Notes under the pieces: generated by a model
Told to the model about the DNA's origin: nothing
Seen by the model: only the letters and a program-made list of their open reading frames with translations
Database searches by the model: none
Position numbers and translations under genes: made by a program
Source of the DNA: Candidatus Thiodubiliella sp.
GTDB lineage: Bacteria; Pseudomonadota; Gammaproteobacteria; PS1; Pseudothioglobaceae
NCBI GenBank assembly: GCA_029237605.1
Contig: JAQRGB010000023.1
Location: 1-64,000, forward strand
DNA length: 64,000 bases
Direction of reading: 5' to 3'
In this document: positions 5,317 through 62,313 of the stretch, one piece after another
Layout: each line of letters starts with the position of its first letter
Numbering within the stretch: the first letter of the stretch is position 1

Positions 5317-7179
5317 TCAAATACGTCTTTTTAAATAAACAAGCAAGATTGAGATTGAAGCCGGTGTTATACCTTGAATGCGGCTTGCTTGACCGATAGT
5401 TTCTGGACGATAGTCGCTAAGTTTTTGTATCACTTCATTTGACAGTGCTTTAATAGAGTTATAATCCATATCACTAGGTAAAACAGTGTCTTCGTTCTTG
5501 CGATATTTTTCAATTCTCCTTGGCTCACAGAACGACATGGCTACGATCCGACTTCATACTTAATCTGATTTTCCACAACTCCGATTAAAGTTGTATTAGT
5601 CAGAAAAGGCTGCCCAGATTCAATCTGACTTAAAATTCGATAATCCACTTTTGGTCGTTTTAATAATTCCAGCAATGAATATTCATGATTCAGTGTTTGG
5701 CCTAAAATCTCAGATGCCTGCGTATCATTAGCTTGAATCCAAGTGGATTTTAAACGCTTTTTTTCTTGCGCTGCTGCTTTATATTTAATTTGAAATGCTG
5801 TCCAACGCTCATCATCTACCAAACCTAATTCTCTACCCTTAGGCGTTAAGCGTTCATCAGCATTGTCTTCTCTCAATAACAAACGATATTCAGCACGCGA
5901 AGTAAACATACGGTAAGGCTCGTTTGTACCTTTAGTAATTAAATCATCTACCATCACGCCAATATAAGATTCATCACGTTTTGGTAGCCAAGCTTCTTTT
6001 CCTAATACAGCACACCCTGCGCTCACACCTGCTAACAATCCTTGTGCTGCTGCTTCTTCGTATCCAGTGGTGCCATTAATCTGTCCAGCAAAATAAGTCG
6101 GATCGTAGCCATGTCGTTCTGTGAGCCAAGGAGTTGTACAAAAGATCATACTCAATAGCATAACCAGGACGCACAATATTGGCATTTTCAAAACCTTTAA
6201 TTGAACGAATAAAATTTCGCTGTATTTCATATGGTAAAGAAGTAGAAACGCCATTTGGATAAACTTCATTCGTCATTAAGCCTTCTGGTTCAACAAAAAT
6301 CTGGTGTGTGTCGCGCTCGCTAAAACGTACAACTTTATCCTCAATCGAAGGGCAATATCTTGGGCCAATGCCTTTAATATTGCCTGTGTACATTGGAGAA
6401 TACTTTAAACTATCACGAATAAAATCATGCGTCTGTTCATTAGTATGTGCTATATAACAAGGAATTTGTTGTGGATGCTCACTTATCTTACCCATAAAAG
6501 AAAAAGTTGGTAATGGTGTATCATCTAGCTGTTTTTGCAACACACTAAAATCAATAGTACGCCCATCAAGCCTTGGCGGTGTGCCAGTTTTTAATCGACC
6601 AACACCTAGATCATAATTACGCAATGTCTTGGATAAAGCATTGGACGGTGCATCGCCAGCCCTTCCACCTTGAAAATTCTTTTGCCCAATATGAATAATA
6701 CCTCCTAAAAAAGTACCAGAAGTAAGAATTACCTTATCCGCGCTAAATGATAAACCCATTTGTGTTACCACTCCTTTAACCACATTATTCTTAATAATTA
6801 AGTCATCAACTTCTTGTTGAAAAAGTGATAAATTTTCCTGATTTTCTAATGCATAACGAATAGCTGCCTTATACATAACCCTATCTGCCTGAGCGCGTGT
6901 GGCACGTACTGCAGGGCCTTTTGATGCATTTAAAGTTCTAAATTGAATACCAGCCTGGTCAATAGCCCTAGCCATTATTCCTCCCATAGCATCAATTTCT
7001 TTAACTAAATGTCCTTTACCAATCCCACCAATAGCAGGATTACAGCTCATTTGCCCAAGTGTTTCAATATTATGTGTTATCAACAGTGTATTTACACCCA
7101 TACGTGCAAGCGCAAGCGACGCTTCGGTACCTGCGTGCCCACCGCCAATGACAATAACTGAATAATGTTGTGATTTCAT
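5317..7179 (-). CDS. mnmG: tRNA uridine 5-carboxymethylaminomethyl modification enzyme MnmG (two adapter breaks)
   Basis: MnmG (GidA) works with MnmE to modify the wobble uridine of several tRNAs, using FAD and NADH. The FAD-binding [18 protein letters not shown] lies at residues 8-25, and [23 protein letters not shown] follows. The C-terminal domain ends [27 protein letters not shown]. Adapters at 6095-6144 and 5516-5554 split the gene into three ORFs. About 18 residues are missing at the first break and a few at the second. The gene was probably intact in the organism. It lies upstream of rsmG, as in many Gammaproteobacteria, but with a remnant gene between them. Confidence 0.94.
5516..5554 (-). 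other. MGI reverse adapter 5 (39 nt, antisense)
   Basis: Antisense reverse adapter starting CTCCTTGGCTCACAG and ending GATCCGACTT. It interrupts the 3' third of mnmG. Confidence 0.95.
6095..6144 (+). other. MGI reverse adapter 6 with barcode TACAAAAG
   Basis: Full 42-nt reverse adapter followed by eight bases of the barcode TACAAAAGGA, which is complete at 59443-59452. It interrupts mnmG. Confidence 0.96.
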
Positions 7180-16994: not shown

Positions 16995-19475
16995 ATGGAT
17001 ATTAATAAATTAACTTCGCAATTCCAACAAGACTTAAGCGCTGCACAGTCCATTGCAATTAATAAAAATCATGCGACAATTGAGGGCGTGCATATATTAA
17101 GTAGTATGCTTAGTAATTACTCTTCAAGTGTAAGTAATATTCTTAAGATATTAAATGTGAATACCAAAAAACTTAAAGACAATATCGATAAAGAGATTGA
17201 TAATTTAGCCGTAGTAGGTAATCCAAATAGTGCTATTGGTATATCGCAAAACTTATTAAGATTGTTTAGCGCTACTGAAAAATTATCAACAGATAAAGGT
17301 GATAAATACCTGTCAACTGAATTATTTTTATTAGCGATTATTAATAACAATGACACAACGACTAAATTATTAAAAGATTTAAATATTGATAAAAAAATCT
17401 ATCAGCTGCTATAGATAAAATTAGAGGGGTAAAACCGTGAATGAGCAAAATACAGAATCTCAAAGAGATGCTCTAAACAAATACACAAGGAGTTGTAGCT
17501 AAGTGTTGTCTTCCTAAGACCGCTTGGCCTCCGACTTGCTTGATCCTGTGATTGGTCGCGATAATGAAATCCGTCGTGCTATTCAAGTCCTACAACGACG
17601 TACCAAAAATAACCCTGTACTTATTGGTGAACCAGGTGTAGGTAAAACTGCAATTGCTGAAGGTTTAGCACAACGCATTATCAATAATGAAGTGCCAGAA
17701 GGCATTAAAGGTAAACGACTATTATCATTAGATATGGCGGCATTGATAGCAGGTGCAAAATACCGTGGTGAATTTGAAGAGCGCTTAAAAGCTGTGCTGA
17801 AAGAACTTGAGGCTGAACAAGGGCAGGTGATCTTATTTATTGATGAATTACATACTATGGTCGGCGCAGGTAAGGCTGATGGCGCAATGGATGCTGGTAA
17901 TATGCTTAAGCCTGCACTTGCTCGTGGTGACTTACATTGTATGGGAGCTACCACGTTGAATGAATATCGTGAATATATTGAAAAAGACTCCGCCTTAGAG
18001 CGTCGTTTTCAAAAGGTATTAGTAGATGAACCTAGCGAACAAGATACGATTGCTATCCTGCGTGGACTGAAAGAAAAATATGAAGTGCATCATGGTGTAG
18101 AAATAACCGATCCTGCTATTATTGCTGCTGTTAGTTATTCTCAGCGCTATATTACCGACAGACAGCTACCTGATAAGGCCATTGATTTAATTGATGAAGC
18201 GGCATCACAAATTCGCATGGAAATTGATTCAAAGCCTGAATCAATGGATAAACTTGACCGTAAATTAGTGCAACTCAAAATTGAACGCATGGCACTGAAA
18301 AAAGAAAAAGATAAAGCATCTAAAGAAAGACTTAAGGAGCTTGAAAAAGTCGGATCGTAGCCATGTCGTTCTGAAAAAACTTGAAAAAGAATATGCTGAC
18401 CTTGAAGAGGTTTGGAAAAAAGAAAAATCTGTTGTCCAAGGCGCACAATATTTAAAAGAAGAACTTGAGCAAGCGAAATCTGACTTTGAATTGGCGCACC
18501 GTAATAATGATTTAGCCAAAATGAGCGAATTGCAATATGGTAAAATTCCAGAACTTGAGGCTAAGATAACAGAATCTGAATCAGCTAATGTGGAAGATAT
18601 GACGCTACTACGCAATAAGGTCACTGAAGATGAAATAGCATACATTGTTGCACGTTGGACAGGCGTTCCTGTAGATAAAATGATGGAAGGTGAGAAGGAT
18701 AAACTCTTACAAATGGAGAATATTATTCATCGGCGCTTAATCGGCCAAGACAAGGCAGTTAAGGTAATATCAGATGCTGTTCGTCGTTCTCGAGCAGGTT
18801 TATCAGACCCTGATCGTCCTGATGGATCGTTTATGTTTATGGGGCCAACAGGTGTAGGCAAAACAGAACTTACTAAAGCATTAGCTGATTTCTTATTTGA
18901 TACAGAACAAGCCATTGTACGCATTGACATGAGTGAGTTTATGGAAAAACATTCTGTTGCACGATTAATTGGAGCGCCTCCTGGATATGTTGGTTATGAA
19001 CAAGGTGGTGTACTGACTGAAGCTGTTCGCAGAAAACCGTACTCAATCATACTACTTGATGAAGTAGAAAAAGCACATTCTGATGTGTTTAATATTCTCT
19101 TACAAGTACTCGATGATGGTCGTTTAACTGATGGACAAGGTCGCACGATTGATTTTAAAAATACTGTTATTATAATGACTTCTAATCTTGGATCTCATTT
19201 AATACAAGAAAATCCTGGAAAAGATATGAACTCTGAATTAACTCAAATTATCGCAGAACACTTCCGCCCTGAGTTTGTCAATCGTATCGATGAGATTGTT
19301 GTGTTTAATAATCTTGAAAAAGAGCAAATTAAAAACATTGCCATATTACAAATTGAAATCCTGAAATCTCGTCTAGCAAAAATTGACCTCAAACTTGAGT
19401 TAGATAGTAATGCAATAACTGTAATTGTAGACAATGGATATGACCCAGTATTTGGCGCACGCCCACTCAAACGCA
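16995..19475 (+). CDS. clpB: ATP-dependent chaperone ClpB (frameshifts, two adapter breaks, 3' truncated)
   Basis: Hexameric AAA+ disaggregase working with DnaK. The N-domain starts [20 protein letters not shown]. The first ATPase domain has GEPGVGKT and the sensor region [14 protein letters not shown]. The coiled-coil M-domain includes [16 protein letters not shown]. The second ATPase has [14 protein letters not shown] and [12 protein letters not shown]. The frame breaks at an A7 run (17391-17397) and a G4 run (17426-17429), each one base short, then at adapters 17486-17537 and 18347-18373. The last residues are cut by the adapter at 19476-19503. The ORF track shows three pieces of one gene. 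Confidence 0.95.
17486..17537 (+). other. MGI adapter 11 with full barcode TAGCTAAGTG
   Basis: CAAGGAGTTG, the complete barcode TAGCTAAGTG (17496-17505), and the antisense forward adapter (17506-17537). It lies in clpB between the N-domain and the first ATPase domain. Confidence 0.97.
18347..18373 (+). other. MGI reverse adapter 12 (27 nt)
   Basis: First 27 bases of the reverse adapter inside the clpB coiled-coil region. Alignment by eye to E. coli ClpB suggests only a couple of native residues are missing, so here the adapter mostly adds length. Confidence 0.94.
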
Positions 19476-23220: not shown

Positions 23221-24535
23221 TGATTGGCTTAGTTATGTTTATCGTCACCTTGGTGTTATTAATGGTTGGCTTTCCAGTGGCATTCACCTTTGCTGGCATG
23301 GCAGTTATTTTTGGTATTTTAAGCCAAGGCGTTGATTTATTTGACTTTATGCCTTATCGCATCATGAGCATAATGCAAAATACCATTCTTATAGCAATAC
23401 CATTGTTTATTTTTATGGGCATTGTCTTACAAAAAACTAAACTTGCCGAACAACTACTGGAAGCCATGGGCAACTTATTTGGTAATATACGCGGTGGCTT
23501 AGCTATTTCTACTATCTTAATTGGTTCATTACTCGCAGCATCAACAGGTGTGGTAGGAGCAAGTGTAATTGCCATGGGTGCTATTTCTCTACCAGTTATG
23601 CTTAAATACAATTACAAAAAAACATTATCTACTGGTGTTATTTGTGCCTCAGGTACCTTAGGTCAAATCATTCCACCTTCTATTGTATTGATTATTCTAG
23701 CAGATGTCTTAAGTGTGTCAGTTGGTGATTTATTTAAAGCAGCAGTCATGCCATCTATTATTTTAGTTGGTGGCTATATTGTTTATGTATTGGTTATATC
23801 TTACCTATACCCAGAAGTAGCCCCAGCCTTTAAAGATAAGAATAATAACTTGGAAAAATCAAAAAAATACATAGCTGTTATCAAGGCCATTGTGCCGCCT
23901 ATTGTGCTAATCATTGCCGTACTTGGTTCAATTTTTTTAGGTATTGCCACGCCAACAGAATCTGCTTCTATCGGTGCAGTTGGCTCTTTACTTTTAGCAT
24001 CTTTCTACCGACGACTTAATTGGGATATATTGTACCAATCAAGTATTGAAACCATTAAAGCCACTTCTATGGTATTTGCTATTTTGATTGGTGCTACTGC
24101 CTTTTCAATGGTATTTACTTATAACGGTGGCGACATAATAGTGGAAAATTTTATTCATAGCCTACCAGCCAAAGAAATAAATTTTAAAGTCGGGGGCCAA
24201 GCGGTCTTAGGAAGACAATGCTAATTATTTTCATTCTTGGATTCTTTATTGATTTTGTAGAAATTTCACTCATTATCGTGCCAATTTTCTATCCAATCGC
24301 CCTATCGCTTGGCATTGATATACAATGGTTCGCCATTCTTATTGCTATGAATTTACAAACTTCATTCTTGACGCCACCATTTGGCTTTAGTTTATTTTAC
24401 CTCAAAGGAGTCGCTCCGAAGTCTATTCAAACCACTGACATATATAAAGGTGTAATGCCTTTTATTATAATACAAGTCACGATATTAGTCAGCTTAATTG
24501 CATTTCCACAATGGTATGGCTTTGATGGGATTTAA
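23220..24535 (+). CDS. dctM: TRAP transporter large permease DctM (adapter-interrupted)
   Basis: The large, about twelve-helix subunit that carries substrate with sodium. It starts IGLVMFIVTLVLLMVGFPVA. It contains the conserved GVVGASVIAMGAISLPVML, SGTLGQIIPPSIVLIILAD and ATPTESASIGAVGS, and a C-terminal LGFFIDFVEISLIIVPIF and LQTSFLTPPFGFSLFYLKGV. A forward adapter at 24187-24218 splits it into two ORFs and displaces roughly ten residues of a membrane helix. A strong hairpin follows its stop. Confidence 0.93.
24187..24218 (-). other. MGI forward adapter 14 (one substitution)
   Basis: AAGTCGGGGGCCAAGCGGTC..., identical to the forward adapter except G for A at the eighth base. It interrupts dctM. 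Confidence 0.94.
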
Positions 24536-24575
24536 ATTTAATTAGCTATTTTTATATAAAAATAGCTAATTAAAT
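24536..24575. terminator. Perfect 18-bp AT-rich hairpin after dctM
   Basis: Arms ATTTAATTAGCTATTTTT (24536-24553) and its exact complement (24558-24575) around a four-base loop, starting at the dctM stop. It probably ends the TRAP transcript in a T-rich tract and isolates the carbonic anhydrase gene. Confidence 0.75.
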
Positions 24576-24590
24576 TAAATCTATTTGTCT

Positions 24591-25070
24591 ATTTGAAATA
24601 TCATATATAAATAAACAAGGTAATAATATTATGATAAAAAATAAAAATATTTTAATCGCATATACAATTGCTACGCTAATTCCATTTAATATAAGCGCAA
24701 AAGATGCTAATTATGACTATCATGAACCAGTTGCAAATAGTATAATTACAGAACAACGTGTATCATTAGAAAAAATACTAAGGGTGCAGGATTTGGGCCA
24801 CAATCACCACGTGACATTGATAATATAGATATTTGAAATATCATATATAAATAAACAAGGTAATAATATTATGATAAAAAATAAAAATATTTTAATCGCA
24901 TATACAATTGCTACGCTAATTCCATTTAATATAAGCGCAAAAGATGCTAATTATGACTATCATGAACCAGTTGCAAATAGTATAATTACAGAACAACGTG
25001 TATCATTAGAAAAAATACTAAGGGTGCAGGATTTGGGCCACAATCACCACGTGACATTGATAATATAGAT
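24591..25070. repeat. Exact 240-bp tandem duplication
   Basis: Positions 24591-24830 and 24831-25070 are identical base for base by eye. The unit holds the leader, start codon, signal peptide and about the first 65 codons of the carbonic anhydrase gene. It could be a recent real duplication or an assembly artefact. Confidence 0.93.
24631..24828 (+). pseudogene. Duplicated 5' fragment of carbonic anhydrase
   Basis: First copy of the duplicated signal-peptide region (MIKNKNILIAYTIATLIPFN...). It has the same A6 frameshift as the second copy (24770-24775) and then runs out of frame to a stop. It has no catalytic domain and is not a separate gene. If the frameshift is a base-calling error, the frame would read through into the start of the second copy, because 240 is divisible by three. 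Confidence 0.8.
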
Positions 25071-25754
25071 ATTGGCAACAACCAAAGATTATTTGGTATA
25101 GCGCCATCCTATACAGAAATGAATTTATGTCATATTCATTTTCATAAAAATGCTGAGCATAAGGGTGGGGAATTTACTAAATATGCAGGTAATGGTGATG
25201 GGCATGGTTTTCAAAGTGGATTTATATATTCATATTTAGCAAAACTAAATAGCGCAGAACTTAAACCTGTTGCACATGAAGTTTGTCCTAGTAAGCACGG
25301 TGGGCTTGTCTCTGGAGATACAATTGAAGCTCATTATGTTTATTCAACTGCAAAAATTAGTCCAGGCCCTGGATTAAGTTATTGTTTTAATGACTCAATC
25401 AAGAATCCTCAGTTGCGTGTGGAATCTCAGGTATATATCCTTGTTAATGATAAAAATGCTCTAGATTTTAAAAATTTAGCTAAATATAACAAAGTATATG
25501 GACTATACCAAGCAACAAATATACCATCTAATACTGGCACTCCAGTTGAGTACATTGGGTCAACTACTGGACCTGATTACAATACAAAAGGGTCTCCGTT
25601 TCAAGTTTCATGGAGTGTTCGCCCTAATGTAGCAAAGGTTGATATAACATCAGTAAATGCTTGGTGTAAAAGAAACGTATTTAATGAAGATCATGCGCGC
25701 GGCGTACGAAATCTTATTATTAATCCTGATTTGCTTTCAAAAATCAATAAATAG
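24871..25754 (+). CDS. Delta-class carbonic anhydrase family protein (one frameshift)
   Basis: Interconverts CO2 and bicarbonate. The signal peptide (KNKNILIAYTIATLIPFNISA) sends it to the periplasm. The catalytic domain contains MNLCHIHFHKNAEHKGGEFT, with the HxH and downstream EH arrangement expected for zinc binding in delta-type enzymes, then HEVCPSKHGG and a second Cys pair candidate. One A is missing from an A6 run (25010-25015). Restoring it gives SLEKNTKGAGFGPQSPRDID, joining both ORFs into about 295 residues. It probably supplies inorganic carbon to the Calvin cycle. Family by memory; the class could be checked by a profile search. Confidence 0.75.
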
Positions 25755-26346
25755 CCTACAGTTAAGTAAGAAAATTTGGTATTACTCAAAAAGCAGCATA
25801 TTTTATGTTGTAAAGAATTAGAATAGCTTATAAACATGGCTCGTTTAAATTTTTTAATATTATTGAAGTGGATAAGACTTATATAAGCAGTAAAGAGAAA
25901 ACAAACACACTGATAATAAATTAAAAGATGATTGTGATGTAGTTAATAAAATAATGGCATTCTTTATTTTTTCAAATCGTATAAAAAGAGTTATTTTAAA
26001 CATACTTAACATCATAGGCTTTAACTCCTGCTAAAAGTATGCCAATAATAACAAAAATACTGAGTCAAAGAAGAGAGGAATATATCGCTTTTATTATGCC
26101 AAATGTAGTCAAACCAAGTACACTTAAATACCGGTCACTACAGTTATAAAGAAGGTATATTTTTAGTTAGCTTAATTGTATAAATCCTAGAGTAAGCCTT
26201 AATAATTAAATTAATTATATTTAATTTAAGATTCTTTTTTTATAACGCATCACTTACCAAAGCTTTGAAAATGGCTAAGTCGACTGCGCGGAAAAAATGG
26301 GTCAAGTTAAAAAAAAGGTCGTTGATTCTATAAAAAATAAATTAGA
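25755..26346. other. Non-coding stretch between carbonic anhydrase and rnpB
   Basis: No intact gene. On the minus strand near 26010-26170 frames such as RYLSVLGLTTFGIIKAIYSS and FVIIGILLAGVKAYDVKYV (with stop) lie in different frames. They look like the decayed end of a membrane protein. Confidence 0.35.
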
Positions 26347-26678
26347 GAAGTTAGTCTATAAGCCGGGTTCTGTAATAGATAGTCATTCATCTACGAATCT
26401 TGTCACCAAAATTCTTTAGCACTCTACCCGTTACCTTGTGCGAGCTTACACCATGGGTAACCTATTTGAGCTTGCTCCAAGTGGGGTTTTCTTGCCACGG
26501 TTGTTACCTTCCGTGCGGTGCGCTCTTACCGCACCTTCTCACCTTTTCCCATAAAGGGTAGTCTATTTTCTGCAGCACTTTCCGTTATGTCACCATACCT
26601 AGCCGTTAGCTAGCACTTTGCCCTGTGGAGCCCGGACTTTCCTCTGAGAAAAACCTCAGCGACTATCCGACCAACTTC
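26347..26678 (-). ncRNA. rnpB: RNase P RNA, class A
   Basis: Catalytic RNA that trims the 5' leader of pre-tRNAs. On the minus strand the 5' end GAAGTTGGTC pairs with the 3' end GACTAACTTC (helix P1). The core contains GAGGAAAGTCCGGGCTCCAC, a GGTAAGAGCGCACCG region, AGATGAATGACT and the 3' ACAGAACCCGGCTTAT. Length about 332 nt, normal for bacterial type A. Not in the ORF track. A TATAAT lies just upstream. Confidence 0.96.
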
Positions 26679-26685
26679 AGTGCTT

Positions 26686-26691
26686 ATTATA
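26686..26691 (-). promoter_or_regulatory. -10 element of rnpB
   Basis: TATAAT on the minus strand, seven bases upstream of the inferred 5' end of RNase P RNA. No good -35 is visible at 17 bases. Confidence 0.55.
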
Positions 26692-26789
26692 GCATTGTAT
26701 AAAATATTTATAATATAATGATATATAAATATATTATAATATTATAATGTTATAATATATAAAGTTTAAAATAAACATTTAGAAGAAAC

Positions 26790-27026
26790 ATGAAAATATT
26801 ATTAATAACAATACTTTTTTTAGCAAATTTTACATTTGCAGGTGCACGGTTGACTGTATATTTAGAAGATAATAATATAACAGAAACTGTGGTTTTTCAA
26901 TGTATGAATTTAAATGAATGCGCTGAGCGTATTCAAGAACGTATGGAATCTGAAGGCGGTTGTGACCCACGCGTTAAAAAAGTAGTAATTGAAACGATTC
27001 ATATTCCTGGAATAGACGACGCTTAA
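26790..27026 (+). CDS. Small secreted protein of unknown function
   Basis: I do not recognise it. The 78 residues begin with a clear Sec signal peptide (MKILLITILFLANFTFAGA). A short acidic domain with three Cys follows (VVFQCMNLNECAERI, SEGGCDPRVKKV) and ends IETIHIPGIDDA. It is preceded by an extremely AT-rich tract. It stands alone between rnpB and fumarase. The signal peptide and regular coding pattern support a real gene. Confidence 0.65.
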   Translation: MKILLITILFLANFTFAGARLTVYLEDNNITETVVFQCMNLNECAERIQERMESEGGCDPRVKKVVIETIHIPGIDDA

Positions 27027-27205
27027 AATTTATTACTTTTCTATAAATATTTACTTAAATAGAGACGATTGACGAAATTACAATTTTCTACCAAATGAAT
27101 GATTTTATTAAATCTTATCCTAGTAATAACTAAGGCTGGACTTTAAAAACCATTAAGTTAATAAAAAGTAACATTTTGATGATTATTCCTATTTATGCAA
27201 AAAAT

Positions 27206-28690
27206 CTATTCTAATAAATTTTTAAATATAGCGTGGATATTCTCACCTTTGGGATCCACTGCGACAGTGACTGGCATATCTTTAACTTCAAACTCATAAA
27301 TAGCTTCCATACCCATTTCTTCAAAAGCTATTATTTTAGCTTTTTTAATAGATTTAGAAATCAAATAAGCTGCACCACCAACTGCGATTAAATAACTGGC
27401 CTTGTGTTTTTTAATGTTTTTGATGGTTGCTTTACCACGTTCAGCTTTACCAATCATACCTAAAATACCTGTGTTCTCCAACATCATATCGCTAAATTTA
27501 TCCATACGAGTGGCAGTAGTAGGCCCTGCAGGGCCAATCACTTCATCGCCAACTGCATCTACTGGCCCTACATAATAGATAAATTTATTATTAAAATCTA
27601 CACCTTTAGGTAGTCCTTCGCCATTGTTTAACATTTGCTTAAGTCGCTTGTGCGCTGCATCTCGTCCTGTAATAATTGTGCCAGTAAGTAGTAAAGTATC
27701 CCCCACCTGCCATTCATTCATCTGCTCTCTATTTAGAGTATTCAAGTCAATTTTATTATACTTAGAAGTATCTATTTTTAAATCAGGATAAATATTCATA
27801 TCTACTTTTGGTAACTGCGCCATTCCTGAACCATCTATAGAAAAATGCAAATGACGCGTGGCAGCACAATTTGGAATTATGGCAACTGCTTGTGATGCGG
27901 AATGACTTGGGTAATCTTTAATTTTAACATCCAATACCGTAGTCAGTCCTCCTAAACCTTGTGCACCAATACCGAGGTCATTGATTTTATTAAATAAATA
28001 TAAGCGCATTTTATCAATCTTTGTTGGGTTAGATTTTTGCGCAATTTCACTAATATTAATCGGCTCCATTAGGCTTTCTTTTGCTATTAACATCGCTTTC
28101 TCAGCAGTGCCACCAACACCAATACCTATAACACCTGGAGGACACCAGCCTGCGCCCATTGTAGGAATCATTTTTAATACCCAATCAATAACATTGTCAT
28201 CAGGTTGTAATACAGAAAATTTTGCTTTATTTTCCGATCCACAACCTTTGGCTGCTACAATAAAATTCACTTTATTACCTGATACAACTTTCATATGAAT
28301 GACTGCCGGTGTATTATCTTTAGTATTGGTTCTGCTAAATAGTGGGTCTTCAACAATTGAAGCACGTAAAGGGTTGTTCTCATTAGTAAAAGCTTGTCTA
28401 ACGCCCTCATTAATCATATCTTCTAACGATAAGTCAGCGTCCCATGTAACATTCATACCCACTTCAACAAATACGTTGACAATGCCTGTATCTTGGCACA
28501 TTGGACGCTGACCAATGGCAGACATTTTTGAATTAATTAAGATTTGTGCAATAGCATTTTTAGCAGGTCTATTGCTTTCTTTTTCGTAAGCACCTATCAT
28601 TGCCTTAATAAAATCAGGACTATGGTAATAGGAAATATATTGCAATGCATTAGCAATGCTTTCAATGATATGTTTTTGTTGAATTTTCAT
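27206..28690 (-). CDS. Fumarate hydratase class I (iron-sulfur)
   Basis: Converts fumarate and malate in the TCA cycle using a 4Fe-4S cluster. The 494-residue protein is complete. Cluster Cys candidates lie in RPMCQDTGIVNVFV, AAKGCGSENKAKF and GAGWCPPGVIGIG. The C-terminal beta domain has GRDAAHKRLKQMLN and YVGPVDAVGDEVIGPAGPTT. It is oriented away from mreB; the two start about 95 bases apart. FumA versus FumB naming is not resolvable. Confidence 0.93.
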   Translation of the reverse strand: MKIQQKHIIESIANALQYISYYHSPDFIKAMIGAYEKESNRPAKNAIAQILINSKMSAIGQRPMCQDTGIVNVFVEVGMNVTWDADLSLEDMINEGVRQAFTNENNPLRASIVEDPLFSRTNTKDNTPAVIHMKVVSGNKVNFIVAAKGCGSENKAKFSVLQPDDNVIDWVLKMIPTMGAGWCPPGVIGIGVGGTAEKAMLIAKESLMEPINISEIAQKSNPTKIDKMRLYLFNKINDLGIGAQGLGGLTTVLDVKIKDYPSHSASQAVAIIPNCAATRHLHFSIDGSGMAQLPKVDMNIYPDLKIDTSKYNKIDLNTLNREQMNEWQVGDTLLLTGTIITGRDAAHKRLKQMLNNGEGLPKGVDFNNKFIYYVGPVDAVGDEVIGPAGPTTATRMDKFSDMMLENTGILGMIGKAERGKATIKNIKKHKASYLIAVGGAAYLISKSIKKAKIIAFEEMGMEAIYEFEVKDMPVTVAVDPKGENIHAIFKNLLE

Positions 28691-28723
28691 ATTATCTATT
28701 ATTTAAATTTTGTTAAAAAGTAA

Positions 28724-28752
28724 TTGACTATTTATAGTATTATATATACTAT
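28724..28752 (+). promoter_or_regulatory. Candidate sigma-70 promoter for mreB
   Basis: TTGACT (28724-28729), a 17-base spacer and TACTAT (28747-28752), about 33 bases before the mreB ATG, in the gap between the divergent fumarase and mreB genes. AT-rich context lowers the weight of the -10. Confidence 0.55.
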
Positions 28753-28784
28753 TTATTTTATCTAATATTTAGGCGGATTTTTTT

Positions 28785-29816
28785 ATGTTTAATTTTTTCA
28801 AACCACAGTGTCTTTCTATTGACCTTGGAACAGCAAATACATTAATTTCTATGAATGGTGAAATTGTACTAAATGAACCATCTGTTGTTGCTATTCATCA
28901 TGAAAAAGGTGCAATAGAAGCAACTGTTATTGCAGTAGGTCAAGAAGCTAAATTGATGTTGGGTAGAACTCCTGGTTCAATTGAGGCTATTCGTCCAATG
29001 AAGGACGGTGTTATCGCTGACTTCAAAATCACAGAAAAAATGCTACAGTACTTTATTCGCAAAGTATCTCATAATAGTTTTTTTTCACCAAGCCCTAGAG
29101 TTCTTATCTGTGTTCCTTGTGGCGCTACACAAGTAGAACGTCGTGCTATAAAGGAAAGTGCAGTTGGCGCTGGAGCACGTGATGTGTACTTAATTGAAGA
29201 ACCAATGGCAGCAGCACTTGGCGCAGGTATAGCGATTAAAGAAGCATCAGGAACAATGGTTATTGATATCGGTGGAGGAACCACAGAGATTGCTATTATG
29301 TCACTAAATGGTTTAGTTTATTCCGATTCGTTGCGTGTGGGTGGCGATGTATTTGATGATTATATTATTAAATATATACGCAAAAAGTATGGCATTATCA
29401 TCGGTGAATCTACTGCTGAAAATATTAAAGAGGAAGTAGGCTCAGCTTTTAATACGACTATTATCAAGAAAAAAGAATTTAGAGGTAGAGATGTCGCCAA
29501 AGGTATTCCGGTAAGTTTTGAGGTGACTAATACAGAAATTAGAACAGCCATACGAGAGCCATTAATCAGTATTGTTAATGCGGTGAGGGTTGCGCTTGAG
29601 CAAACACCGCCGGAGCTAAGCGCTGATATTGTAGAGAATGGTATAGTGTTAACAGGTGGTGGCGCTCTTTTAGAAGGTTTGGATAAACTTATCAATCAAG
29701 AAACTAAGTTACCAGTACGTGTTGATGATGACCCTTTAACTTGTGTGGTTCGTGGTGGAGATATCGCCCTAGGTATGATAGAAAAACACGACATAGGATT
29801 CTTGTCAGCAGAATAA
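28785..29816 (+). CDS. mreB: Rod shape-determining protein MreB
   Basis: Actin-like filament protein that positions peptidoglycan synthesis. The 343 residues are complete: [20 protein letters not shown] (phosphate 1), [16 protein letters not shown] (phosphate 2), [18 protein letters not shown] (adenosine motif). It is first in mreB-mreC-mreD-mrdA, all on the plus strand with short gaps. Confidence 0.97.
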
Positions 29817-29847
29817 TTTTTCTTTAGATGCTTTAAGTATCTAAGTT

Positions 29848-30657
29848 ATGCAAAAAAATTTAAAAGTTCTCATACCTATTTTTATCTCTACTTTTATAAT
29901 CTTTTTAGATTATAAATCTTCCTATTTAAACAGTCTAAAGCAAACAATCAATATACTTATATCGCCAGTATATTTAGTCGCTAATTTACCATCTCAACTC
30001 TATATTTGGATTAACGAACAAAATACAACAAAGCAAATATTATTAAGTCAAAATAAAAAACTCAAAGCCGAATTGCTACGTTTAAAAGTTGATTTACAAG
30101 TTCATAACGCTCTATTGCTAGAAAATAAAAAACTTGGTCAATTATTAAAATCTCGTTACAAACTTGATAAAAAAGAGTTTATATTAGCACGTGTCATATC
30201 TGTTAGTCAGTCACGATTAAAAAAACAAATTTCCATTAATAAAGGCAGTGGTGATGGCATAAAAATTGGTCAAGTTGTATTAGGAGCTGATGGAGTGCTT
30301 GGGCAAGTGAGCCATGTAACGTCATTATATTCAAGTGTGTTGCTAATCACTGATCCATCTCAACACATACCTGTTAAGAATGAGCGCAATGGTGTCCGCG
30401 GTATTGGTAAAGGTATGGCGTTTTATAAAGAAAAATTAATGGTGAATTTTATTCAGCATGGACTTGATATAAATATTGGAGACATTTTTTTAAGTAGTGC
30501 TATCGGGTCAAAATTCCCAGAAGGATATCCGGTAGGCCGTGTAACTCATATAGATAAGAAGAAAAATGACCAATTTTTAACTATCGAATTAACGCCATCT
30601 CAAACTATTGAGCAGCTAGAGTTCGTTCTAATTAATAATATATCTAAAACATTCTAA
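29848..30657 (+). CDS. mreC: Rod shape-determining protein MreC
   Basis: Bitopic membrane scaffold for the elongasome. It has an N-terminal membrane helix (VLIPIFISTFIIFLDY), a coiled-coil (QILLSQNKKLKAELLRLKVD) and the periplasmic beta-domain with ISINKGSGDGIKIGQVVLGA and GVRGIGKG. The 269 residues are complete. It precedes mreD by two bases. Confidence 0.94.
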   Translation: MQKNLKVLIPIFISTFIIFLDYKSSYLNSLKQTINILISPVYLVANLPSQLYIWINEQNTTKQILLSQNKKLKAELLRLKVDLQVHNALLLENKKLGQLLKSRYKLDKKEFILARVISVSQSRLKKQISINKGSGDGIKIGQVVLGADGVLGQVSHVTSLYSSVLLITDPSQHIPVKNERNGVRGIGKGMAFYKEKLMVNFIQHGLDINIGDIFLSSAIGSKFPEGYPVGRVTHIDKKKNDQFLTIELTPSQTIEQLEFVLINNISKTF

Positions 30658-30659
30658 AT

Positions 30660-31133
30660 ATGCTTACCCATAAAAGACCTTATATTTTTCTTATCAAAGC
30701 TATGTTGTTTGTACTAATTATTAGCACACTTTATCTACCTGAAATAATTTTAGATATTGCTCCTTTTTGGACTTTGTTATTTTTTATTTACTGGATAAAG
30801 ACTTTTACTATTAATGGACAATTTTATCTTGCTTTGCTATTAGGTATGTTAATTGATGTGCTATATGGAGATATTTTAGGTCAAAATGCTTTGGCGCTTA
30901 TCTTGAGTAGTGCTTTTATTAATAATGTAAAGCAATCTTTTGTTGTTTCTAATATTACCACACAGCAAACTTATGTCTTTGTCGCATCTAGTATTTATTT
31001 AAGTATATTGCTATTAGTACATGCCCTATCAATCCAAGATATTAGTTTTAACCCCAATTTACTACTCAAGCCATTTATAAGCGCATTACTATGGCCTGTA
31101 GCTCAAGTATTACTCTCAAAGCTTAAACATTGA
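30660..31133 (+). CDS. mreD: Rod shape-determining protein MreD
   Basis: Small integral membrane partner of MreC. 157 hydrophobic residues with several helices, and the family pattern LLGMLIDVLYGDILGQNAL around the centre. Identification rests on this pattern and on its fixed place between mreC and mrdA. Confidence 0.9.
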   Translation: MLTHKRPYIFLIKAMLFVLIISTLYLPEIILDIAPFWTLLFFIYWIKTFTINGQFYLALLLGMLIDVLYGDILGQNALALILSSAFINNVKQSFVVSNITTQQTYVFVASSIYLSILLLVHALSIQDISFNPNLLLKPFISALLWPVAQVLLSKLKH

Positions 31134-31154
31134 CACAATATATCTAGACAACTT

Positions 31155-32993
31155 ATGAATAAAGTTAGCAATATTAAGATAGAAAATAAAATTTTTTCTA
31201 AAAGAATAACTTTGGCACTAATTTTTATCTTACTTCTAACTTTGATATTAATATCAAGTATCTTTAGTCTACAAATTATTAATTACGATTATTACACTAA
31301 AGAATCATTGGGCAATAAAATGCGCATACTACCGATTGCTCCAATGCGTGGTAAAATATTTGACCGCTATGGTGAAATCATTGCTACAAATCAGCTTTCT
31401 TATAAACTCACACTTACCATTGAAAAAATCAAAGATATTTCCACAACACTATTGTCACTTAAAAAGTTTGGTTTAATTAATGATAAAGACATTAGCACTT
31501 TTAAAAAAATAAATAAGCAGTATAAAAAATTTCACAGTATCCCGTTAAAACACAAACTAAGTGAAGGACAAGTAGCAAAATTTTTAGTTAGCAACCAATT
31601 TAAAGTCGGAGGCCCAAGCGGTCTTAGGAAGACCTTATTTTCATAGAATCTATCCTAATAATGATTCTAGCGTACATGTGACTGGCTATATATCAAGAAT
31701 GAATAAAAAAGATAATGAGCTCTACGATAAGAAAAATTATGCAAATACTTTTTTGTTGGAAAAACTGGCATTGAAAAACAATACGAAACTTTATTACATG
31801 GAAAAATTGGTAAGAGGCAAATTGAACGCAATGTTACAGGTCGAATTATCAATACAAAAAATATTCAAAAGCCAAAACAAGGTAGCGATTTATACCTCAG
31901 TATTGATTTAGAATTGCAAAAAAAGCAGAATCTCTGCTCAAAGGTAAACGTGGCTCTATTGTAGCAGTTGATACCACGAATGGCGAAGTATTGGTAATGG
32001 TAAGTACTCCTATTTATAACCCAACATTCCTGGAGAACGTGGTGGCATTTTGCCTTCTAGGGCTTGGACAAAAATCAAAAGATATTCCACAGCTAAATCG
32101 TGCTATTCAGGGATTATATCCGCCAGGCTCAACCATTAAGCCTATGGTTGCATTGGCAGGACTTGAACAAGGAATAATCACTTCTCATAGTAAAACTTAT
32201 TGCCCAGGTTTTTTCAAACTACCAAATGTAGCACGTAAATTTAATGGCTGGAAGCGCAGTGGACATGGTGTGATAAATGTTAAAGATTCCATTGCACAAT
32301 CTTGCGATGTATTCTTTTATGATCTAGCTGATAAGATTGGCATTAATGGCTTACACGATAGCTTAGAATATTTTAATTTTGGCAAAATAACTGGCATTGA
32401 CATTCCTGGAGAACGTGGTGGCATTTTGCCTTCTAGGGCTTGGAAAAAAATCAATAAGGGTAAGCCTTGGTATCGAGGAGAAACTCTGATTACAGGTATT
32501 GGACAAGGGTTTATGACAGCTAGTCCATTGCAACTAGCTGTTGCCACGGCGGCTTTAGCTAATAAAGGTATGATTATTCAGCCTAAATTACTAAAGAGAG
32601 TTAGGACATCAGATGGTAGTATTAAAAATACTGATAAAATTTTGCAAAAACAAATACCTATTAAAGATATTCATAATTGGGAATATGTAATTGAAGGCAT
32701 GAGGCGAACCATTTATGCACCAAAAGGTACAGGCAGAAAACTCAACAAAGATTTGAAGTACACCTTAGCAGGAAAAACAGGTACCGCTCAAGTATTTAGT
32801 TTAGGTGCTGACGAGCAATATATTGCCGCTAATTTAGATGAACGCTTGCGAGACCATGCGCTATTCACTGGGTTTGCACCTATTAAAAACCCAAAAATTG
32901 CAATTGCTGTAATTGTGGAAAATGCAGGTAGTGGTAGCTCAGAAGCAGCGCCACTCGCTAAAGAAGTTCTAGATTTATACTTTGAAAAACAAG

Positions 32994-33004: not shown

Positions 33005-34499
<1,495 letters not shown>

Positions 34500-34523
34500 A
34501 ATTATATGAAAAAAAAATTAAAA

Positions 34524-34571
34524 GAGAGTCAACTCCTTGGCTCACAGAACGACATGGCTACGATCCGACTT
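34524..34571 (-). other. MGI reverse adapter 19 with barcode ACTCTC (antisense)
   Basis: Full antisense reverse adapter (34530-34571) preceded by GAGAGT, the complement of barcode ACTCTC(TACC). It covers the recX stop. Confidence 0.96.
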
Positions 34572-61132: not shown

Positions 61133-62313
61133 GTCCACCTTCTCTAATAGCAAACCTCAAGCCATCTTCCATTGCAATTGGTGACAATAGCTCTACATTC
61201 ATCTTAACATTATCACCAGGCATCACCATTTCTACATCTTTTGGTAATTGACAAGCACCGGTTACGTCAGTTGTTCTAAAATAAAACTGCGGACGGTAGT
61301 TATTAAAAAATGGTGTATGACGACCTCCTTCCTCTTTGCTAAGTACATAAACTTCTGCTTCAAACTTAGCGTGTGGCTTGATTGAACCAGGCTTAGCCAA
61401 TACTTGACCACGCTCTACATCTTCACGTTTAGTGCCACGTAAAAGAACGCCAACATTATCTCCAGCTTCACCAGAGTCTAATAACTTACGGAACATCTCG
61501 ACACCTGTACAAATTGTTGTTTGAGTATCTTTAATACCAACAATCTCAATTTCATCATTAACATTAACAATACCTGCTTCAATACGACCTGTTACAACAG
61601 TGCCACGACCTGAGATTGAAAATACATCTTCAATTGGCATGATAAATGACTTATCAGTATCACGCTTTGGTGTTGGAATATACGAATCTAGCGCCTCAAC
61701 TAACTTAAAAATTGAAGGCACTCCAATCTCTGATGTATCGCCTTCTAATGCCTTAAGTGCAGAACCAAAAATAATTGGTGTGTCGTCACCTGGAAAGTCA
61801 TATTCATTTAGTAGCTCACGAATTTCCATTTCAACTAACTCGACTAACTCTTCATCATCAACCATGTCTGCTTTGTTCATATAAACAAGAATATAAGGCA
61901 CGCCCACCTGTTTAGATAAAAGGATATGTTCGCGTGTTTGAGCCATTGGGCCATCTGTTGCAGCAATAACAATGATAGCACCATCCATTTGTGCAGCACC
62001 TGTAATCATATTTTTAACATAGTCAGCATGTCCAGGGCAGTCAACATGCGCATAATGACGATTTTCTGACTCATACTCTACGTGTGCTGTTGAGATAGTA
62101 ATGCCACGCTCCCTCTCTTCAGGAGCATTGTCAATATCTGCATAATCATTAAACTCTCCGCCATTAGCTTCTGCCATAACTTTAGTTATCGCCGCTGTTA
62201 GAGTTGTTTTACCATGGTCAACGTGACCGATCGTACCTACGTTTACATGAAGTCGGAGGCCAAGCGGTCTTAGGAAGACAAGACCTGATAACAACTCCTT
62301 TTTCTTTTGACAT
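61133..62313 (-). CDS. tuf: Elongation factor Tu (both ends damaged by adapters)
   Basis: GTPase that delivers aminoacyl-tRNA. The native start MSKEK is at 62313; the adapter at 62250-62300 then masks about seven residues before [21 protein letters not shown]-motifs DCPGHADY and NKADMVDD follow. The C-terminus ends at AIREGG; about 13 residues (usually RTVGAGVV...) are replaced by the adapter at 61082-61132. It lies between fusA and tRNA-Trp. Confidence 0.96.
62250..62300 (-). other. MGI adapter 37 with full barcode TTATCAGGTC (antisense)
   Basis: Complete forward adapter, then GACCTGATAA (complement of barcode TTATCAGGTC), then CAACTCCTT, the start of the antisense reverse adapter. It breaks the tuf N-terminus. 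Confidence 0.97.

What the first reader, a model, noticed from the sequence alone, without database searches (positions are those of the whole stretch)
24591..25070. Exact 240-bp tandem duplication at the carbonic anhydrase start
The unit copies the leader, start and signal peptide with no difference between copies, including the same A6 frameshift. 240 is divisible by three, so with the frameshift restored the first copy would read through into the second and give a protein with two signal segments. Perfect identity in decaying DNA points to either a very recent event or an assembly error.
Basis: seen in the sequence. Interest (0 to 1): 0.6.

Follow-up and report, generated by a model that had tools for sequence, protein, structure and literature searches.

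The report
Short tandem duplication in adapter-ridden assembly
A 240-base stretch at the start of a carbonic anhydrase gene really is written twice in this draft genome, but the broken genes around it come from leftover sequencing adapters and miscounted letter runs, so the doubling is at most an ordinary small duplication and may itself be an assembly error.

Summary
In detail: 24590-25073 is a perfect head-to-tail duplication (period 240, 244 matching positions, breakpoints sharing TATT). It covers the leader, ribosome-binding region, start and signal peptide of a delta carbonic anhydrase (PF10563) gene. The interpretation mostly fails. (1) With the frame restored, copy 1 would not read into copy 2: the repeat junction creates a TGA at 24834-24836. 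Copy 2 keeps its own leader and start, so the duplication neither breaks the gene nor makes a double-signal protein. (2) The 'decaying DNA' is largely assembly error. The draft genome carries 206 pieces of MGI/BGISEQ sequencing adapter, with eight sample barcodes, in 864 kb; 500 kb of congeners carry none. Of 22 gene frameshifts found against relatives, 14 lie at adapters and the other 8 at homopolymers of 6 or more. None of these 8 lies in the adapter-bounded '<...>' segments, which I take to be short-read contigs. The gene's own A6 (A7 expected) sits in the error-prone kind of segment. Identity 'including the frameshift' is therefore no clock. Whether the duplication itself is real cannot be settled without reads: I give about 55% to an ordinary microhomology-bounded duplication and about 40% to an assembly artefact. 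Low interest; the adapter contamination is the useful result.

The parts
24590..24829 (+). first 240-bp repeat unit: leader, start codon (24631), signal peptide and N-terminal codons of the delta carbonic anhydrase; a 65-aa dead-end ORF at 24631-24828
24830..25069 (+). second, identical repeat unit; supplies the leader and start (24871) of the carbonic anhydrase gene proper
24590..24593 (.). TATT microhomology; also found at 24830-24833 (junction) and 25070-25073 (right breakpoint)
   Evidence: a random 240-bp-spaced breakpoint pair has 4 or more shared bases with probability 0.032
24834..24836 (+). TGA made at the repeat junction; it stops copy 1 in the true coding frame, so no read-through into copy 2
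25119..25754 (+). main body of the delta carbonic anhydrase (PF10563, E 1.9e-76); the coding frame is open from the A6 run in copy 2 to 25754
25012..25017 (+). A6 run in copy 2 (A7 expected from relatives; same in copy 1 at 24772-24777); most likely a homopolymer miscall
   Evidence: alignment with four relatives; all adapter-free frameshifts found are at homopolymers of 6 or more and outside adapter-bounded segments
24187..24218 (+). MGI/BGISEQ adapter piece inside dctM, 372 bp before the repeat; it causes the dctM frame break
24529..24581 (.). A+T-rich palindromic hairpin between dctM and the repeat, a possible terminator
   Evidence: self-match on the minus strand; -23.1 kcal/mol, z -7.1

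Best explanation
The sequence holds one exact 240-bp tandem duplication at the 5' end of a delta carbonic anhydrase gene. Most likely it arose as an ordinary slippage or illegitimate-recombination duplication between two TATT sites 240 bp apart (inferred). It has no coding effect: copy 1 is a dead-end leader and short fragment closed by a junction TGA (shown), and copy 2 provides a full leader, start and signal peptide (shown). The apparent decay around it, including the A6 frameshift in both copies, is mostly assembly error: untrimmed MGI adapters built into the contigs, and homopolymer miscalls in stretches that look like uncorrected long-read sequence (adapters shown, long-read origin inferred).
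For: Exact repeat with TATT at the breakpoints, P = 0.032 for 4 or more shared bases at random breakpoints. It is the only long-period tandem duplication in 864 kb, and none of the 67 adapter sites of the contig shows long repeated flanks other than adapter sequence (one chance-like 14-mer), so overlap duplication is not a habit of this assembly. No adapter 8-mer lies within 24400-25300. Junction TGA. Adapters: 206 pieces in 864 kb against 0 in 500 kb of congeners, with eight recurrent 10-nt barcodes between the two adapter arms; adapter identity from PMC10788357. Frameshifts: 14 of 22 adapter-linked, 8 of 8 others at homopolymers of 6 or more against 19% background. The ten adapter-free indel sites (two of them) are all outside the adapter-bounded '<...>' segments.
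Against: Four bases of microhomology is modest. In Salmonella, duplication junctions confirmed by experiment had 11 bp or more, and those with 7 and 9 bp failed (PMC3411829). The repeat lies 372 bp after an adapter-marked segment end whose opposite adapter is missing, which is where a bad join could hide. No reads and no second genome of the species were available.
Confidence: 0.55

Rival explanations
1. The duplication is an assembly artefact: a gap-bridging piece and the start of the next piece overlapped by 240 bp and were joined end to end.
For: The contig is demonstrably a patchwork: adapters alternate in orientation ('<...>' pieces joined by bridges), contig ends carry adapters, and C1 holds scaffold gaps of 94-97 N at repeats. 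The repeat sits in a segment (24219-31602) that begins at an adapter and lacks the matching opposite adapter.
Against: No other such duplication in 864 kb; no long repeated flanks at 67 adapter sites; 4-bp microhomology is unlikely by chance for a blind join (P = 0.032); both copies carry the same A6, whereas a bridge meeting an accurate contig should differ there if A6 is a miscall.
Confidence: 0.4
2. The gene is truly decaying: the A6 frameshift is real, arose first, and was then copied by a very recent duplication.
For: Both copies carry the same A6; delta carbonic anhydrase is patchy in the genus (3 of 12 genomes incl. own, one of them a fragment), so loss would be tolerable.
Against: Frameshifts of the same kind hit clpB-like, PBP2-like and other genes that are intact in the relatives compared, always at adapters or homopolymers; the rest of the carbonic anhydrase frame is open and scores 256 bits against PF10563.
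Confidence: 0.12
3. The duplication has a function, for example a doubled leader or a promoter made at the junction (TTGATA-16-TATCAT, 24817-24844) that raises expression.
For: A 10-of-12 promoter-like match spans the junction; tandem duplication activating horizontally acquired genes has been reported (PMC11111574, abstract); the gene is absent from this place in two congeners.
Against: The number of promoter-like sites does not clearly exceed shuffles (10 found, mean 7.2, sd 2.9); no homologous duplication is seen in relatives.
Confidence: 0.03

Closest known systems
Spontaneous small tandem duplications at short direct repeats in bacteria (PMC3411829)
   Same: direct tandem copy with short shared sequence at the breakpoints
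   Different: only 4 bp shared here; existence in the cell not shown
Sequencing-adapter contamination of public microbial genomes (PMC11536531)
   Same: adapters concentrated at piece ends, reverse complements at piece starts
   Different: here MGI/BGISEQ rather than Illumina adapters, and most lie inside long contigs, breaking genes
Delta carbonic anhydrase, PF10563
   Same: whole domain matched, with a signal-peptide-like N-terminus as in relatives
   Different: nothing unusual apart from the A6 run and the doubled 5' end

Membership tests
Delta carbonic anhydrase (PF10563) | profile match over the whole domain | tested here: met
   profile positions 4-181 of 181, 256.6 bits, cut-off 26.3
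Delta carbonic anhydrase (PF10563) | catalytic activity | not testable with these tools
   needs an enzyme assay
Genuine tandem duplication | head-to-tail copies with defined breakpoints | tested here: met
Genuine tandem duplication | short shared sequence at breakpoints beyond chance | tested here: inconclusive
   4 bp, P = 0.032; shorter than experimentally confirmed cases
Genuine tandem duplication | present in single reads from the organism | not testable with these tools
   no reads held
Pseudogene / gene decay | disabling mutations not explained by sequencing error | tested here: not met
   14 of 22 frameshifts at adapters, 8 of 8 others at homopolymers; the latter all outside adapter-bounded segments
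Adapter contamination | sequence identical to known library adapters with barcodes | tested here: met
   both BGISEQ adapters as printed in PMC10788357, eight recurrent 10-nt barcodes, none in relatives

The most novel reading that the evidence does not exclude
A real, recent 240-bp duplication of the leader and start of a horizontally acquired carbonic anhydrase that changes its expression in this lineage.
Probability: 0.03. Interest if true: 0.3.

Novelty: already known. Interest (0 to 1): 0.12.

Why it matters
Biologically little: a small tandem duplication that leaves the gene's own start intact. Practically more: this draft genome serves as a species representative although it carries over 200 MGI adapter pieces, and those make healthy genes look like pseudogenes. 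Claims of gene decay drawn from it should be withdrawn or re-checked.

Tried and rejected
Double-signal read-through protein: rejected (TGA at the junction). Other copies of the unit elsewhere in the genome: none; a second delta carbonic anhydrase gene: none. The same duplication in relatives: intact single-copy genes only. The junction sequence in viral contigs: none. Adapter remnants at the repeat: no 8-mer; a 9-of-10 match to one barcode near 25071 is the conserved Gly-Asn-Asn codons of the gene and is taken as coincidence. Repeated flanks at other joins: none of note.

Full report
Observation. Positions 24590-25073 are an exact head-to-tail duplication with period 240; the match runs for 244 positions, so the breakpoints share TATT. 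The left flank reads TTTGTC|TATT|TGAAAT, the junction ATAGA|TATT|TGAAAT and the right flank ATAGA|TATT|GGCAAC. The unit holds 41 bp of leader, the ATG, a signal-peptide-like stretch and the first codons of a delta carbonic anhydrase, whose main body (25119-25754) matches PF10563 at 1.9e-76. No other copy exists in the genome, and no second gene of this family.

Coding consequence. In relatives the N-terminus reads ...LEKNTKG-GFGPQSPRDID... without a break. Here the A-run has 6 bases where 7 keep the frame, in both copies. In the true frame, copy 1 runs ...GFGPQSPRDIDNIDI and then meets TGA at 24834-24836, made at the repeat junction. Copy 2 carries a complete leader and start, so the duplication does not harm the gene.

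Is the neighbourhood decaying? Comparison with congeners showed broken frames in dctM and in clpB-like, PBP2-like and one further gene (the clpB and PBP2 names are inferred from position and length, not from a family search). The alignments explain these. Inserted pieces read AAGTCGGAGGCCAAGCGGTCTTAGGAAGACAA and AAGTCGGATCGTAGCCATGTCGTTCTGTGAGCCAAGGAGTTG, whole or in part, which are the two BGISEQ/MGI adapters as printed in PMC10788357. There are 206 such pieces in 864 kb of this genome and none in 500 kb of four congeners. The core of one adapter is found 71 times in the genome and its reversed control never. Eight 10-nt barcodes recur between the two adapter arms. Of 22 frameshifts detectable against relatives in 108 kb, 14 are adapter-linked, and the other 8 all have a homopolymer of 6 or more nearby, against 19% of background stretches.

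How the contig was built (inference). Adapters mostly alternate in orientation, reverse-complement at the start of a piece and forward at its end, and most contig ends examined carry them too. This suggests short-read pieces ending in untrimmed adapters, set into or joined by other sequence. The ten adapter-free indel sites (eight, two more in the clpB-like gene) all lie outside the '<...>' pieces, although those hold 49 of 108 kb of the compared coding sequence. That pattern fits long-read sequence not corrected by short reads. The carbonic anhydrase start lies in such a stretch (24219-31602). Its A6 run is therefore most simply a homopolymer miscall, and systematic miscalls repeat in both copies. 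Perfect identity of two 240-bp units is expected at an error density near one frameshift per 4-5 kb and says nothing about age.

Is the duplication real? For: four shared bases at the breakpoints have probability 0.032 for a blind join; no similar duplication in 864 kb; no long repeated flanks at 67 adapter sites in the contig; no adapter trace at the repeat. Against: 4 bp is short compared with junctions confirmed in Salmonella (PMC3411829), and the repeat follows an adapter-marked piece end by 372 bp with the opposite adapter missing. I put a real duplication slightly ahead (about 55:40). Reads are needed.

Genomic setting. The space between dctM and the RNase P RNA gene is about 120 bp in two congeners but about 1.8 kb here and 1.2 kb in another congener, which has a different gene there. 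The carbonic anhydrase is present in only three of twelve genomes of the genus, own included (one a fragment), and in one of them at another place. The gene looks like a lineage-specific insertion in a variable intergenic site.

Noticed in passing
whole window, 38 sites, e.g. 540-581, 6095-6136, 17506-17537, 34431-34472, 62250-62281: Untrimmed MGI/BGISEQ adapter pieces, often with barcodes, built into the contig; the contig itself begins with one (1-31). They break dctM, clpB-like, PBP2-like and other genes.
   Followed up: yes
34431-34571: Two facing adapters 58 bp apart coincide with a break in gene order relative to congener G011 (its coordinates jump by about 7.5 kb), so this may be a wrong join.
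   Followed up: partly
G000 contig C1 at about 194206, 338585, 344208 and 513939: Gaps of 94-97 N, all at or beside repeats, three of them short tandem repeats.
   Followed up: partly
24535-26343: The dctM to RNase P RNA gap is variable in the genus: about 120 bp, a carbonic anhydrase here, or an unrelated gene in G002.
   Followed up: partly
L067 2400-2570 and 3290-3450: In congener G011 the region upstream of the carbonic anhydrase has two similar stretches (about 170 bp) that begin and end with AGAGAC-TTTGCATAAAT and its complement, perhaps a small mobile repeat.
   Followed up: no
G002 C1 1-81000 (L148-L152): Many exact 291/294-bp tandem repeats spread over about 80 kb, perhaps very large repeat proteins.
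   Followed up: no
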